Source: Nesterenkonia massiliensis
GTDB taxonomy: Bacteria; Actinomycetota; Actinomycetes; Actinomycetales; Micrococcaceae
Assembly: GCF_000455245.1 (NCBI RefSeq)
Contig: NZ_HG005168.1
Span: 1 to 64,000 of the forward strand
Length of the DNA: 64,000 nt
Direction of reading: 5' to 3'
The notes beneath the pieces were generated by a model. That model searched no databases. It was not told the origin of the DNA and worked only from the letters and a program-made list of their open reading frames with translations. How positions within the stretch are numbered: position 1 is the stretch's first letter; every line of letters starts with the position of its first letter. Positions 17,010-28,613 of this stretch are shown here, in pieces. The position numbers were made by a program, and so were the translations under genes.

Positions 17010-18566
17010 TCACTGCTCCCGGCTCTCCAAGGCCGCCAGCCGCAGGTGCTCGATCTCCTCTTCGTCCAGCTCAGCGTCATGTTCGTGATCGGTGTCAAGA
17101 TCCTCACCCTTGGGCAAACGAAGAGTCATCGTGGCACCGCCGCCGACGGTATCCGAGTGCCGAACACTCCCTCCGTGCTGAGCTGCAATCGCTGCACAGA
17201 TGGCCAGCCCAAGTCCGGTTCCACCGGTTTCACGCTGACGAGAATTATCTGCGCGATAGAAGCGTTGGAAGATCTTCTCCGCGTCCTCAGCTGAGATGCC
17301 ATCGCCGTGGTCGCGAACTTCCAGAACAGACTCTTCGCTGCCGTCCTCGCCAACTTGGGTGCCTACTGCAAGTTCGATGGGCGTGCCATCGGGGGTGTAG
17401 CGCAGTGAATTGGTGACCAGGTTGGTCACAATCTGCCGGATCCTGCCCTCATCGCCGAGGGCGGGTGCCGGTTTAGGGGCGCCGTCGTGAAGTCCGATGA
17501 CTTTGACCTCGCGGTCTGGGGCATTGACCACCAGATCCATGACTGCTTCATGGGCGATGATATTGAGGTCCAGTGGCCGCATCTGCGGAGGACGCTGCTC
17601 ATCCAGCCGGGCCAGGGTCAGCATGTCCTCGACCAGCTGGCCCATCCGGGTGGCTTCGGATTCAATGCGCCCCATGGCCATGCCCACCGCCTCTGGGTTG
17701 TCGCTGATGCCGCCCTGCCGGTAGAGCTCGGAGAAGCCGCGGATCGTGACCAGTGGGGTGCGCAGCTCATGGGAAGCGTCCTGGATGAAGCGGCGCATCT
17801 TCTGCTCTGACGCAACCCTGGAGTCAAAAGCAGCTTCAATATGGGCCAGCATGATGTTCAGTGAGTTCGCCAGGCGGCCGATCTCAGTCTCTGCCGGTGC
17901 TGTGGTCTGCACGCGCTGGGAGAAGTCACCGCCTGCGATGGCTGCCGCCGTCTTCTCTACGCGCAGCAGCGGGCGGAACGCCCGGGTCACCAAGGAGTAA
18001 GCGATGATGGAGGCGCCCAGGGTGGCCAGCAGCCCGATCGTGGCCACCAGGAACGTGGCGCGCTCCACCGAGGTCTCCACCGAGTTCAGCGGCAGAGCGA
18101 TCACCAGGATCTCGCGGTCTTCATTCGTGAAGGGGTGGACCTGCATGCGCCAGCCGCGGGAATTCTCCGTGGTCCCGGGAACATCAAAGGACTGCCCGGC
18201 CAGCTCCCTGGCCTGATCCGCATCAAGTTCCGGTAGCTGCGGGGAGTCGAAACCCTCCACCACTGGATGGGTGGAACGCCCTTCGATCGGTGTTCCCTCG
18301 GCATCCAGAATGCGTCCGTGGAAGCGAATAATGGAGGGCTGGAATCCGCCCTGATCCACCTGGAAGCCCAAGTACTGGGCAACATTCTGAGCGTTGTCCC
18401 GAAGCTCCTCGTCCAGGTTCCGCACCATCTCCTGCCGGAACAGCGACGCCGAGACGAAAGTGGTCACGAACAGCGTCAGCAGCAGCAACCCTGAGGTGAT
18501 TGCCACCAGCTGTGTTCGCAGGGAAGCGCTGCGCCAGGCGCGGCTGAGCGAGGAGATGAAGCGCAT
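17010..18566 (-). CDS. Sensor histidine kinase, OmpR-partner type
   Basis: 518 residues: helix 1 (about 20-42), extracellular sensor domain (43-165), helix 2 (170-193), HAMP (194-245), dimerisation domain with phospho-acceptor H266 in SHELRTPLVTIRG, and an ATPase domain with the N, G1 and G2 boxes (TNLVTNSLRYT, VRDHGDGIS, GTGLGLAI). It is second in a two-gene unit behind the response regulator, 43 bases downstream. The class resembles mycobacterial TcrY/MprB-type kinases; the signal is unknown. A TAGACT box 6 bases before the ATG suggests it may also have its own leaderless promoter. Confidence 0.93.
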   Translation of the reverse strand: MRFISSLSRAWRSASLRTQLVAITSGLLLLTLFVTTFVSASLFRQEMVRNLDEELRDNAQNVAQYLGFQVDQGGFQPSIIRFHGRILDAEGTPIEGRSTHPVVEGFDSPQLPELDADQARELAGQSFDVPGTTENSRGWRMQVHPFTNEDREILVIALPLNSVETSVERATFLVATIGLLATLGASIIAYSLVTRAFRPLLRVEKTAAAIAGGDFSQRVQTTAPAETEIGRLANSLNIMLAHIEAAFDSRVASEQKMRRFIQDASHELRTPLVTIRGFSELYRQGGISDNPEAVGMAMGRIESEATRMGQLVEDMLTLARLDEQRPPQMRPLDLNIIAHEAVMDLVVNAPDREVKVIGLHDGAPKPAPALGDEGRIRQIVTNLVTNSLRYTPDGTPIELAVGTQVGEDGSEESVLEVRDHGDGISAEDAEKIFQRFYRADNSRQRETGGTGLGLAICAAIAAQHGGSVRHSDTVGGGATMTLRLPKGEDLDTDHEHDAELDEEEIEHLRLAALESREQ

Positions 18567-18572
18567 AGCGAA

Positions 18573-18578
18573 AGTCTA
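18573..18578 (-). promoter_or_regulatory. Leaderless -10 box of the sensor kinase
   Basis: TAGACT on the minus strand ends 6 bases before the ATG at 18566, in the 43-base gap behind the response regulator. Confidence 0.45.
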
Positions 18579-18609
18579 GGTGCAGAACCTGCGGGGAGTC
18601 GGCAGTGAT

Positions 18610-19338
18610 CTACAGGCCCTGGCTGCGCTGGCGGCGCTCCCAGGTCTGCAGCACATATCCCACGCCACGCTTGGTCTGGATGGCCGGGGCACCTTCGGCG
18701 CCGGAGTCGATTTTGCGGCGCAGATAGGAGATGTAGGACTCCACGATGGAGGCATCCCCATTGAAGTTGTACTCCCAGACATGATCCAGGATCTGCTGCT
18801 TGGACAGTACCCGGTTGGGGTTCATCATCAGGTAGCGCAGCAGTTTGAATTCGGTGGGGGAGAGCTCTACGACTTCACCGTCGCGGCGTACTTCATGAGC
18901 GTCGTCGTCGAGTTCAAGGTTGTCGATGGTGATCACGGCGTCCTCATCCTCAAAAGGTGCGGTACGGCGCAGCACGGCCTTGATTCGAGCGACCACTTCG
19001 TCCAGCGAGAACGGCTTAGTGACGTAGTCGTCGCCGCCCACTGTCAGGCCGGTGATTTTGTCCTCGGTGTCATCACGGGCGGTGAGGAACAGCACCGGGA
19101 AGTGCTTGCCGGCCGCGCGCAATCGGCGGGTTACGGTGAAGCCGTCCATATCGGGCAGCATCACGTCCAGCACGGCGAGGTCAGGCTGGAACTCCTCAGC
19201 GGTGTCCAGTGCCTCGCGGCCATTGGCGGCCGCTGCTACCTCGAAACCTGCAAAACGCAGGGACGTTGCTAGCAGTTCACGGATATTGGGCTCATCGTCG
19301 ACGACGAGCAGCTTGGCTTCCGGAGTCTTGTCAGTCAC
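18610..19338 (-). CDS. Response regulator, OmpR/PhoB family
   Basis: 242 residues. Receiver domain with acidic pocket D14-D15, phospho-acceptor D58 in VLDVMLPDMDG, and K108-region TKPF; the C-terminal winged helix spans about 145-235 and ends in GVGYVLQ. It is the partner of the kinase just downstream. The start is GTG at 19338 with a weak GAGGGA site ahead. Regulated genes cannot be deduced. Confidence 0.94.
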   Translation of the reverse strand: MTDKTPEAKLLVVDDEPNIRELLATSLRFAGFEVAAAANGREALDTAEEFQPDLAVLDVMLPDMDGFTVTRRLRAAGKHFPVLFLTARDDTEDKITGLTVGGDDYVTKPFSLDEVVARIKAVLRRTAPFEDEDAVITIDNLELDDDAHEVRRDGEVVELSPTEFKLLRYLMMNPNRVLSKQQILDHVWEYNFNGDASIVESYISYLRRKIDSGAEGAPAIQTKRGVGYVLQTWERRQRSQGL

Positions 19339-20638: not shown

Positions 20639-22556
<1,918 letters not shown>

Positions 22557-22635: not shown

Positions 22636-22651
22636 GTGACACATCTGTGAC
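22636..22651 (+). promoter_or_regulatory. GTGAC direct repeat, MtrA-like site 1
   Basis: GTGAC at 22636-22640 and 22647-22651, one helical turn apart, each flanked as TGTGACA. This resembles the GTNAC direct repeats reported for the actinobacterial cell-wall regulator MtrA, whose known targets include NlpC/P60 hydrolases. Confidence 0.5.
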
Positions 22652-22744
22652 AAACTTGCTCGGTCTCGCGACCATCTTGTGATCAACCGCGGAATTCCGG
22701 GCCAGAAGCCGAGGATTTCCGGGATAACCCAAGGGTTGCGCCAG

Positions 22745-22777
22745 CTCAGGTCACGCTTACCGTGACCTGAGCGTGAC
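22745..22777. promoter_or_regulatory. Perfect palindrome plus GTGAC direct repeat (site 2)
   Basis: CTCAGGTCACG (22745-22755), CTTAC, CGTGACCTGAG (22761-22771): 11-base perfect arms. GTGAC inside the right arm (22762-22766) repeats at 22773-22777, again with an 11-base period. The second GTGAC (GTGACA at 22773) could double as a -35 box for TATAAA at 22794. Confidence 0.55.
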
Positions 22778-22799
22778 ATTTATATCAACCTGTTATAAA

Positions 22800-22985
22800 G
22801 TCATCGACGTGCCCGGGGCAGATGTCCGAAATGCCCCAGGCGCCTCGGATCGGCGAAATCCCTGCAGCCGATCAGAGAAAGTTCGCAAACTACCGCATGG
22901 CAGGGGGCGGGAACCGCGGTCGGTTAACGACCTGGAACCAGCAGCATCCCGGCTGCCCGTTCCACACCGGCGGACCCGCCGAACC
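22800..22985 (+). ncRNA. Probable cyclic-di-AMP (ydaO-type) riboswitch
   Basis: A leader of about 200 bases precedes an NlpC/P60 cell-wall hydrolase gene, the classic actinobacterial position of ydaO-type switches. Visible matches to the class are ATCGGCGAAATCCCTGC early and GGCAGGGGGCGGGAACC later, with CCTGC and GCAGG able to pair. Boundaries are approximate and no folding was run. Confidence 0.6.
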
Positions 22986-23005
22986 AGGGAGAGGTTTCAG
23001 AAGAA

Positions 23006-23923
23006 GTGACAGAGAACACCACGATCGCCTCGCGCCGTGAGCGCCGCGCTCGCAACACCCTTGCCAGCGCCGTGGCCTCCAACGCAGGTACTGCAGGTCG
23101 CACCGCGGCTGTTGCCCTTGCTGCTTCCGGCCTGGTGATCACCTCCGGCGTGGCGGCAAATGCATCCGCTGAGGGCCCCAGCCAGGAGGGCCGCGAGGTC
23201 ACCATCCTCCAGGTCAACGCTTCCGAGCTGGCAGTGGAGCGCACCAGCAACTCTGCACCGGTGGCCGTCACTGCCTCCCACGAAGTGGACCTGGCATTCG
23301 ATCGCCCGGTGGTCTCCACCAGCCCCGCACCTGAGCCGGTACAGGCTCAGGCTCCTGTAGCCACTGAGGCAGCCGTGACCCCGGCAGCTCAGCAGGCACC
23401 CGCTCAGCAGAGCACCCAGACTTACAGCCAGACCGCAGAGCAGGCACCCGCCCAGCAGAGCCAGCAGGCACCCGCCCAGCAGAGCCAGCAGGCACCTGCT
23501 CAGCAGTCCCAGTCCAGCGGCGCAACCGCGGCTTCCAGCAGCGAAGCCACCTCGGCACCGGCAGAGGCTCCCTCCGGTGGCAACGGCTCCGTGGCCAGGG
23601 CTGCCTACGCAGGTATTGGCACTCCCTACCTCTGGGGTGGCACCTCCACTGCTGGTTTCGACTGCTCCGGCTTCATCAACTGGGCTTACGCCCGTGCAGG
23701 TCGGGGCGGCCTCCCCCGCACTACCCATGGCATGATGGCCAGCCTGCCCCGTGTCTCCACCCCGCAGCCCGGCGACATCGTCATCGCCAATGGACAGGGA
23801 CACGGCGGCATCTATGTTGGCAACGGTCAGGTCATCTCCGCCACTTCGTCCGGTGGCGTGCGTCTGCACGGCGCTCATGAGGGCTGGCACCAGGTGACCG
23901 CTTACCTGCGGCCCGGCGGCTGA
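23006..23923 (+). CDS. Secreted NlpC/P60 peptidoglycan hydrolase
   Basis: 305 residues. A long Sec-type leader has basic residues at 10-16 and a hydrophobic stretch at about 33-52 ending ANASA. A Gln/Pro/Ala linker (about 105-190) contains three copies of the eight-residue unit QAPAQQSQ. The catalytic domain (195-303) has C220 in FDCSGF, H267 in GHGGIYVG and the usual YLWGG motif, the cysteine-peptidase signature for cutting D-Glu to diamino-acid bonds in cell-wall peptides. GTG start at 23006. Expression probably depends on cyclic-di-AMP and an MtrA-like regulator through the leader described above. Confidence 0.93.
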   Translation: MTENTTIASRRERRARNTLASAVASNAGTAGRTAAVALAASGLVITSGVAANASAEGPSQEGREVTILQVNASELAVERTSNSAPVAVTASHEVDLAFDRPVVSTSPAPEPVQAQAPVATEAAVTPAAQQAPAQQSTQTYSQTAEQAPAQQSQQAPAQQSQQAPAQQSQSSGATAASSSEATSAPAEAPSGGNGSVARAAYAGIGTPYLWGGTSTAGFDCSGFINWAYARAGRGGLPRTTHGMMASLPRVSTPQPGDIVIANGQGHGGIYVGNGQVISATSSGGVRLHGAHEGWHQVTAYLRPGG

Positions 23924-27962: not shown

Positions 27963-28613
27963 ATGAAAGCCGCGGGGTACGGGGGCGTCGTCGATCTGCA
28001 GTACCCATTTACAGGGCGCTGGCTGGTCCAGAACAGTCCCGCCAACCGAGTGCCCAGCCACCGGAAAACGGTATTCGCCACCTCCTACGCGATCGACTTC
28101 GTACCGGTTGGTGATACCCACCGCACAGCCCCGGTGACCTTCGCGACACTTCTGCGTCCGGAACCGCCGGAGAAGTTCCCAGGCTTCGGTCGCCCGGTCC
28201 TCGCTCCTGCCGACGGGGCCGTTGTCGCCGTTCATGACAGTGAACCCGACCATGCTGCCTACCGGGGCCTGCCTTCACTTCGGTACGCCTTGACCCAGTC
28301 GCGCCGAGCGGCCGCAGGTTGGACGGCCCTGGCCGGCAATTATGTGGTGCTGGAGAGCGGGGGGGGGGCGTTCATTGTCCTCTGCCACCTCCAGCAGGGA
28401 TCGGTGAAACCCAGTGCAGGGCAAAGGGTCCGGGCTGGTGAGCTGCTCGGTCGCTGCGGAAACTCAGGCAACAGCACAGAGCCGCATCTGCATATTCAAG
28501 CGATCAACACCCCTGATATCGAACGTGCCTCCGCTGTGCAGATGAGGTTCAAGGGGTCGTTGCCCCGCAACGGTCAGATCGTGGAGATCGATGAGCAGGC
28601 GCGGGCCGTCTGA
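27963..28613 (+). CDS. M23/LytM metallopeptidase-like protein without signal peptide
   Basis: 216 residues. The M23 zinc site is visible as H33 and D45 (SYAIDF), H142 (CHLQQGS) and H175-x-H177 (EPHLHIQ). The N-terminus shows no hydrophobic leader, so it is predicted to stay in the cytoplasm unless exported another way or the start is wrong. Family members cut peptidoglycan cross-bridges; a cytoplasmic one might serve another role. ATG at 27963 follows GGCGGAGACGG. It lies 33 bases after the PNPOx-like gene. Confidence 0.85.
   Translation: MKAAGYGGVVDLQYPFTGRWLVQNSPANRVPSHRKTVFATSYAIDFVPVGDTHRTAPVTFATLLRPEPPEKFPGFGRPVLAPADGAVVAVHDSEPDHAAYRGLPSLRYALTQSRRAAAGWTALAGNYVVLESGGGAFIVLCHLQQGSVKPSAGQRVRAGELLGRCGNSGNSTEPHLHIQAINTPDIERASAVQMRFKGSLPRNGQIVEIDEQARAV

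What the first reader, a model, noticed from the sequence alone, without database searches (positions are those of the whole stretch)
22636..22777. Two GTGAC direct-repeat pairs with 11-base period ahead of a cell-wall hydrolase
Seen: GTGAC at 22636/22647 and 22762/22773, both with 11-base spacing, the second inside a perfect 11-base-arm palindrome. Known: MtrA recognises GTNAC-type direct repeats one turn apart and regulates NlpC/P60 genes. Inference: MtrA control with a second unknown regulator on the palindrome.
Basis: partly seen in the sequence, partly recalled or inferred. Interest (0 to 1): 0.5.

Follow-up and report, generated by a model that had tools for sequence, protein, structure and literature searches.

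The report
MtrA box before remodelled riboswitch leader
The repeats look like an ordinary binding site for the cell-wall regulator MtrA, but the messenger-RNA leader behind them looks like a reshaped c-di-AMP riboswitch, in bacteria where no c-di-AMP-making enzyme was found.

Summary
Both GTGAC-N6-GTGAC pairs exist. The proximal pair (22762-22777), in a longer conserved form, recurs in eight Micrococcaceae genera, at a fixed distance from a TATA-like -10 in seven, ahead of NlpC/P60-type hydrolases. It fits the published Streptomyces MtrA site, and MtrA is present in 30 of 30 genus genomes. The distal pair recurs in 6 of 36 genus promoters. The palindrome's left arm was seen only in this species, so the 'second regulator' is unsupported. 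MtrA plus NlpC is known biology (C. glutamicum).

The surprise lies between promoter and start codon. In relatives tested this leader is a ydaO c-di-AMP riboswitch. In the window's genus (Nesterenkonia) no diadenylate cyclase and no above-threshold ydaO was found (0 of 30 each), yet the leader is conserved and covarying. Reciprocal covariance models show that its long forms share the 5' pseudoknot of ydaO leaders; the aptamer core is gone, and short forms lack everything between pseudoknot and Shine-Dalgarno.

Best reading: an MtrA-controlled promoter followed by a derived ydaO leader that should not be serving home-made c-di-AMP. Whether it senses something else, acts ligand-free or is decaying is open.

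The parts
21822..22556 (+). upstream gene: DtxR-family metal-dependent repressor
   Evidence: NF053665 302.7 bits, cut-off 290; PF02742, PF01325
22636..22651 (+). distal GTGAC-N6-GTGAC pair, 126 nt upstream of the proximal pair; possible second MtrA site
   Evidence: such a pair lies upstream in 6 of 36 genus promoters, shuffles mean 0.03, maximum 1 in 400 rounds, offsets -53 to -128
22744..22772 (.). inverted repeat GCTCAGGTCACG-CTTAC-CGTGACCTGAGC; its right arm holds the first half of the MtrA box; left arm not seen in genus relatives
22762..22777 (+). proximal GTGACC-N5-GTGAC direct repeat; probable MtrA box; GTGACA (22773-22778) lies at the -35 position
   Evidence: consensus in PMC5650626
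22791..22799 (+). extended -10, TGtTATAAA
   Evidence: TATA or TGTA 32-33 nt after the repeat start in 29 of 30 pattern loci checked, TGn before it in 24 of 30
22809..22843 (+). 5'-most hairpin of the leader RNA
   Evidence: minimum-energy fold
22844..22877 (+). pseudoknot arm helix, 22844-22854 with 22867-22877 (one mismatch)
   Evidence: pair counts on alignments
22860..22905 (+). helix equivalent to ydaO P2, CCCUGC 22860-22865 with GCAGGG 22900-22905, crossing the arm helix (H-type pseudoknot)
   Evidence: layout of ydaO leaders
22889..22896 (+). near-invariant ACUACCGC joining segment
   Evidence: alignments A1 and A4; one of 31 genus leaders (L015) has ACAUCCGC
22906..22980 (+). domain closed by a P3-like helix, 22906-22911 with 22975-22980, at the place of the c-di-AMP core
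   Evidence: 6 of 7 aligned pairs show double changes in 24 long genus leaders; equivalence to ydaO P3 is inferred from position
22831..22915 (+). match to covariance model R1, built only from 5' modules of ydaO leaders of other genera
   Evidence: 37.5 bits, E 3.5e-9 (L009 1772-1856)
22987..22994 (+). Shine-Dalgarno GGGAGAGG
   Evidence: same letters in 23 of 24 long genus leaders; L091 has GGGAAAGG
23006..23923 (+). NlpC/P60 cell-wall hydrolase, GTG start, DCSG motif
   Evidence: PF00877 66.7 bits

Best explanation
The stretch 22636-23005 is the control region of an NlpC/P60 hydrolase. MtrA binds the 11-nt direct repeat 22762-22777, whose second half lies at the -35 position of an extended -10 promoter, and sets transcription; the distal pair is probably an auxiliary MtrA site. 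The transcript starts with a ~200-nt leader descended from a ydaO c-di-AMP riboswitch. Its lineage lost the diadenylate cyclase and the aptamer core, but kept the 5' H-type pseudoknot (arm helix plus P2) and, in long forms, a P3-like closed domain next to the Shine-Dalgarno. Shown: sequence, conservation, covariation, homology of the long leaders' 5' module to ydaO leaders, joint absence of cyclase and riboswitch. Inferred: MtrA binding, the sign of regulation, the order of losses, and that the leader controls translation by setting access to GGGAGAGG, either ligand-free or with a new signal.
For: Repeat found in 33 of 197 family genomes, 0 in the control; near-fixed spacing to the -10 in 29 of 30 loci; published MtrA consensus KTRACC-N5-GTKACN; MtrA over cut-off in 30 of 30 genus genomes; 28 of 31 genus leaders precede an ORF with DCSG, the other 3 ORFs being cut by the locus or contig end. 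Of 16 loci scanned with Rfam, ydaO is over cut-off behind the same promoter in L016, L017, L041, L044, L063 and in none of 8 genus loci; 0 of 30 genus genomes over cut-off; DAC 0 of 30, 11 of 14 controls positive. Same 197 family genomes: DAC+ydaO+ 151, DAC+ydaO- 0, DAC-ydaO+ 5, DAC-ydaO- 41 (my comparison of the lists). R1 from ydaO leaders finds 22 of the 28 genus leader loci given (of 31) at E<=0.033; R2 from genus leaders finds 10 of the 12 ydaO leader loci given (of 18) at E<=0.055. Covariation: 86.0% of cells paired over 38 leaders of both kinds against 74.7% shuffled and at most 52.3% slid; 93.3% over 24 long genus leaders against 87.1% shuffled. Core motif in 0 of 31 genus and 18 of 18 ydaO leaders.
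Against: No binding or expression data. The bare GTGAC pair is not enriched genome-wide, and none was found in the 2.2 kb around the own mtrA. R1 misses all 6 short-form leaders given; their membership rests on shared promoter, pseudoknot and ACUACCGC. The structures counted were read off members of the same alignments, which favours them over the slid controls. Single-sequence folds are mixed: whole leader z -3.0, the 78-nt module z 0.1, four short forms from -3.2 to -0.1. 5 of 30 genus genomes gave no DNA match to the leader used. 5 family genomes keep ydaO without a detected cyclase, so the coupling is not absolute.
Confidence: 0.7

Rival explanations
1. Another OmpR-family response regulator, for example the one encoded at 18610-19338 near this gene, uses the direct repeat rather than MtrA.
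For: OmpR-family proteins often bind 11-nt direct repeats (recalled). A regulator of the same score class (about 208-215 bits with the MtrA model) lies within about 9 kb of a leader match on the same contig in 21 genus genomes, by comparing coordinates.
Against: It scores 213.8 bits against MtrA's 300-bit cut-off. The site matches the published MtrA consensus, and in C. glutamicum nlpC carries an MtrA site. I did not test whether the neighbour is linked to NlpC genes in the other genera.
Confidence: 0.2
2. The leader is a decaying relic of the c-di-AMP riboswitch with no present function.
For: The cyclase was not found and the core motif is absent; short forms lack the whole second domain.
Against: Compensatory changes in the arm, P2 and P3-like helices within the genus, the near-invariant ACUACCGC, and near-full-length copies at two or more places in 7 of 30 genus genomes argue for selection.
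Confidence: 0.2
3. The leader still binds c-di-AMP, or a related dinucleotide, taken up from neighbours or made by an unknown enzyme.
For: It keeps part of the ydaO architecture; 5 family genomes keep ydaO with no DAC found.
Against: The conserved core motif is absent in 31 of 31 leaders, and the window leader and 8 genus loci have no c-di-AMP riboswitch match at E<1.
Confidence: 0.08
4. The palindrome 22744-22772 is the site of a second, separate regulator.
For: Perfect 12-nt arms.
Against: The left arm was not seen in the other genus promoters listed; the right arm is explained by the conserved MtrA box.
Confidence: 0.07

Closest known systems
Corynebacterium glutamicum nlpC (cg2402) control region
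   Same: NlpC/P60 gene with an MtrA site and a ydaO-type leader that likely acts on translation (PMC9960051, passages)
   Different: There the riboswitch is intact, DisA makes c-di-AMP, and MtrA represses. Here no cyclase was found and the core motif is absent; the sign of MtrA action is unknown
Streptomyces MtrA sites
   Same: KTRACC-N5-GTKACN direct repeat (PMC5650626, passages); repeats 5 or 6 nt apart (PMC13189361, passages)
   Different: Here the repeat is a long conserved string at a near-fixed distance from the -10, with the second half at the -35
ydaO/yuaA c-di-AMP riboswitch, RF00379
   Same: Place ahead of cell-wall hydrolases, P2 helix and 5' pseudoknot shared with ydaO leaders of the same family, P3-like helix in the same position
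   Different: No Rfam match, core motif absent; in short forms the P3-like domain is missing too

Membership tests
MtrA binding site | Direct repeat GTNAC(C) with 5-6 nt spacing | tested here: met
   GTGACC-TGAGC-GTGACA against the consensus of PMC5650626
MtrA binding site | An MtrA orthologue is present | tested here: met
   NF040689 384.6 bits in own genome, cut-off 300; over cut-off in 30 of 30 genus genomes
MtrA binding site | Protein binds the DNA | not testable with these tools
   needs footprinting or EMSA
c-di-AMP riboswitch RF00379 | Scores above the family gathering threshold | tested here: not met
   no match at E<1 in the window leader or 8 genus loci; 0 of 30 genus genomes over cut-off
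c-di-AMP riboswitch RF00379 | Conserved core motif (GACAGCU region) | tested here: not met
   0 of 31 genus leaders, 18 of 18 ydaO leaders by one regular expression
c-di-AMP riboswitch RF00379 | Common descent with ydaO leaders of the family (5' module) | tested here: met
   reciprocal covariance models for long forms, the window's included; not shown by R1 for the 6 short forms given
c-di-AMP riboswitch RF00379 | Ligand made in the cell (DAC domain) | tested here: not met
   PF02457 0 of 30 genus genomes, 11 of 14 controls positive
c-di-AMP riboswitch RF00379 | Binds c-di-AMP | not testable with these tools
   needs in-line probing or ITC
NlpC/P60 hydrolase | NLPC_P60 domain with catalytic Cys motif | tested here: met
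   PF00877 E 2.1e-18; DCSG present (that this holds the catalytic Cys is recalled)

The most novel reading that the evidence does not exclude
After losing c-di-AMP, Nesterenkonia turned the ydaO leader of its NlpC/P60 genes into a different regulatory RNA: the 5' pseudoknot is a self-standing control element (possibly sensing a new ligand, ion or protein) that outlived the aptamer it used to serve. A second cyclase-less genus (g4) may have done the same.
Probability: 0.45. Interest if true: 0.78.

Novelty: new variant of a known kind. Interest (0 to 1): 0.56.

Why it matters
It offers a natural experiment in how a riboswitch evolves when its ligand disappears: the same promoter and the same gene type, with ydaO in most sister genera and a core-less but still covarying leader here. 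It separates the ligand-binding core from a 5' pseudoknot that appears to be under its own selection, a directly testable claim, and names a candidate orphan regulatory RNA for cell-wall hydrolases.

Tried and rejected
The idea that the first-seen UTR was an unrelated new RNA was dropped once its layout was recognised in ydaO leaders and the models cross-hit. The idea that the window regulator 18610-19338 is MtrA was dropped (below cut-off). A genome-wide MtrA regulon from the bare pattern was not usable: 5 of the 6 other exact pairs overlap a stop-to-stop frame of 150 codons or more, and after the remaining one (L003) no ORF over 120 aa starts within 500 nt. A first pair count on A1 used an arm shifted by one column and was replaced. 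In one search the automatic helix finder chose implausible helices for several rows (L011, L012, L028, L081, L085, L086 among them), so helix claims rest on the alignment counts. Genus g4: 7 of 8 genomes have a match to the promoter and short leader of L022; CCCCCGC/GCGGGGG was found in all 7, but the arm was read partly by eye, since the helix finder picked other arms for most. R1 (given L021 and L022) and R2 (given 7 g4 loci) find none, so that parallel is only suggestive. L046 (g14) gave no model match and no TATA-like -10 at the usual place. Literature: 0 held papers contain both Nesterenkonia and riboswitch; among the rows listed, which show 20 of 69, 15 of 37, 15 of 352 and 3 of 3 papers, no title or abstract start was about a core-less ydaO. 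Nelson 2013 and Jones 2014 are not held, so I could not check whether the 5' pseudoknot of actinobacterial ydaO leaders is described there. Passages of PMC5393176, PMC9602371 and PMC10117811 were also seen and add nothing against the reading. On re-checking for this filing I replaced 'fixed distance in eight genera' by seven of eight genera and 29 of 30 loci, raised the neighbouring-regulator rival from 0.18 to 0.20 because its linkage is wider than I had first stated, and lowered the main confidence from 0.72 to 0.70.

Full report
Observation. The two GTGAC-N6-GTGAC pairs are at the stated places and are the only exact matches in the window; shuffles give 0.21 on average. The bare pattern is not rare in the genome: 8 matches against 15 for the reversed control. 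The palindrome has 12-nt arms (22744-22755, 22761-22772), and only the first GTGAC of the second pair is inside it.

Promoter. A DNA search of 149 family genomes gave matches in 19; in genus members the match mostly begins at the second pair and runs to the gene, in several other genera it covers the pair alone. The wider pattern GTKACCTNARCGTGACATT has 35 matches in 33 of 197 family genomes, in 8 of 32 genera, none for the reversed control. I built the pattern from relatives, so it measures spread, not an independent prediction. Downstream ORFs of these loci mostly carry NlpC/P60-like ends, read by eye; for a few the script picked a spurious short frame. In the genus I checked 31 leaders: 28 lead into an ORF with DCSG, and in the other 3 the ORF runs off the sequence. 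TATA or TGTA lies 32-33 nt after the repeat start in 29 of 30 pattern loci, from 7 of 8 genera (L046 of g14 lacks it), preceded by TGn in 24 of 30. In the window this is TGtTATAAA, 22791-22799. The second half-site GTGACA lies where a -35 would be. That geometry resembles promoters at which OmpR-family activators cover the -35 (recalled), but the C. glutamicum case is repression, so the sign is open.

Which protein. S. coelicolor MtrA recognises G/T-T-G/A-A-C-C-N5-G-T-G/T-A-C-N (PMC5650626, passages); a 2026 paper restates GtnAcC-n5-GTnAcn (PMC13189361, passages). The window site GTGACC-TGAGC-GTGACA fits. The own genome has MtrA at C2:334891-335556 (384.6 bits, cut-off 300), and 30 of 30 genus genomes have one over cut-off. 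Its best match among solved structures is 2gwr, named mtrA, with the stretch DTRLVNVHVQRLR identical (that it is the M. tuberculosis protein is recalled). The response regulator in the window (18610-19338) is not MtrA by score (213.8 bits). It stays a real rival: a regulator of that score class lies within about 9 kb of a leader match on the same contig in 21 genus genomes, by comparing coordinates. In C. glutamicum the nlpC promoter has GlxR, MtrA and EsrR sites plus a ydaO riboswitch (PMC9960051, passages). No MtrA-type pair was found in the 2.2 kb around the own mtrA.

Distal pair and palindrome. An exact GTGAC-N6-GTGAC lies upstream in 6 of 36 genus promoters against 0.03 in shuffles, at -53 to -128, several with a similar TTCT spacer. 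The palindrome's left arm was not seen in the other genus promoters listed, so it looks like a local feature.

The leader. The window leader has no Rfam match at E<1, yet the leader of another species of the genus (L054) finds DNA matches in 25 of 30 genus genomes, near full length at two or more places in 7 of them. [quoted passage not shown] No genus genome has RF00379 over cut-off (0 of 30; the best, 17 bits, is not at the leaders of that genome), nor a DAC domain (0 of 30; 11 of 14 control genomes positive). Over the same 197 family genomes I compared the lists: DAC+ydaO+ 151, DAC+ydaO- 0, DAC-ydaO+ 5, DAC-ydaO- 41 (the ydaO scan used stricter filters at that size). Contig lengths and record titles identify the genus as Nesterenkonia (for example G066:C1, G042:C14, G089:C4), family Micrococcaceae.

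Homology. In ydaO leaders of the family an upstream arm of about 10 nt pairs with the loop of P2, and the same layout is seen in most genus leaders. Model R1, built only from 16 ydaO 5' modules, finds 22 of the 28 genus loci given (of 31) at the leader with E<=0.033; the window's leader scores 37.5 bits, E 3.5e-9 (window 22831-22915). The 6 missed are all the short forms given; the 3 loci given from other cyclase-less genera are missed too, and there are two weak off-leader hits (E 0.22, 0.7). Model R2 from 31 genus modules finds 10 of the 12 ydaO loci given at E<=0.055, an eleventh at 0.3, misses L044, and finds none of 8 loci from g4 and g14. In 197 family genomes R2 hits 40, of which 11 are genus members. 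Five of the other hits (G007, G038, G104, G159, G183) overlap RF00379 rows visible; I did not check the rest, whose rows were cut or not compared.

Structure. Over 38 leaders of both kinds 86.0% of cells pair against 74.7% in shuffles and at most 52.3% when slid; 12 of 17 pairs have changes on both sides. ydaO modules alone: 90.2%. Over 24 long genus leaders (93.3% against 87.1% shuffled) the arm pairs at 90%, P2 at 97% and the P3-like helix at 92% with double changes in 6 of 7 pairs. Minimum-energy folds are less telling: whole leader z -3.0, 0.1 for the isolated module, and from -3.2 to -0.1 for four short leaders. ACUACCGC is nearly invariant. The ydaO core motif is absent from 31 of 31 genus leaders and present in 18 of 18 ydaO leaders. 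Short forms (L011, L047, L089, L092, L094, L095) place the P2 3' strand directly against the Shine-Dalgarno.

Mechanism, inferred. MtrA sets transcription. In short forms, forming P2 would mask the 5' part of the Shine-Dalgarno; in long forms the P3-like domain would bring it close, and RNAalifold offers a rival pairing of the CCUC at the arm with the GAGG of the Shine-Dalgarno. Switching between arm and Shine-Dalgarno pairing is a plausible translational control, in line with the CTCC/GGAG idea proposed for C. glutamicum. What would flip it here is unknown; it should not be home-made c-di-AMP.

Parallel. Genus g4 (0 of 8 genomes in the positive lists) has a promoter-and-leader match in 7 of 8 genomes and a short leader with CCCCCGC/GCGGGGG and an arm partly judged by eye. 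The models do not reach it, so this is a lead only.

Verdict. The unexpected part is a core-less ydaO-derived leader in a genus where no cyclase was found, a new variant of a known kind. The held library gave 0 papers with both Nesterenkonia and riboswitch; papers not held could still describe the ydaO 5' pseudoknot.

Noticed in passing
window 17010-19338: A histidine kinase and OmpR-type response regulator pair, not MtrAB by score; a regulator of the same score class lies within about 9 kb of a leader match in 21 genus genomes by coordinates.
   Followed up: partly
other genera: G027, G055, G036, G120, G134: Five family genomes have ydaO riboswitches over cut-off although no DAC domain was found; they may be recent losses or have an unseen ligand source.
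   Followed up: no
L183-L189 (genus g4): A second cyclase-less and ydaO-less genus has the same promoter and a short leader with a possible similar pseudoknot.
   Followed up: partly
L064 266-353: The 5' module model R2 also matches a second place in this locus (E 0.031); the related locus L063 has a second RF00379 at 291-508, so the module may be general for ydaO leaders of the family.
   Followed up: no
L016, L055, L057, L062 at -24 from the pair: An inverted AGGTCAC half-site recurs upstream of the MtrA box in another genus.
   Followed up: no
window 27963-28613: An M23 peptidase gene lies about 4 kb downstream in the same window.
   Followed up: no
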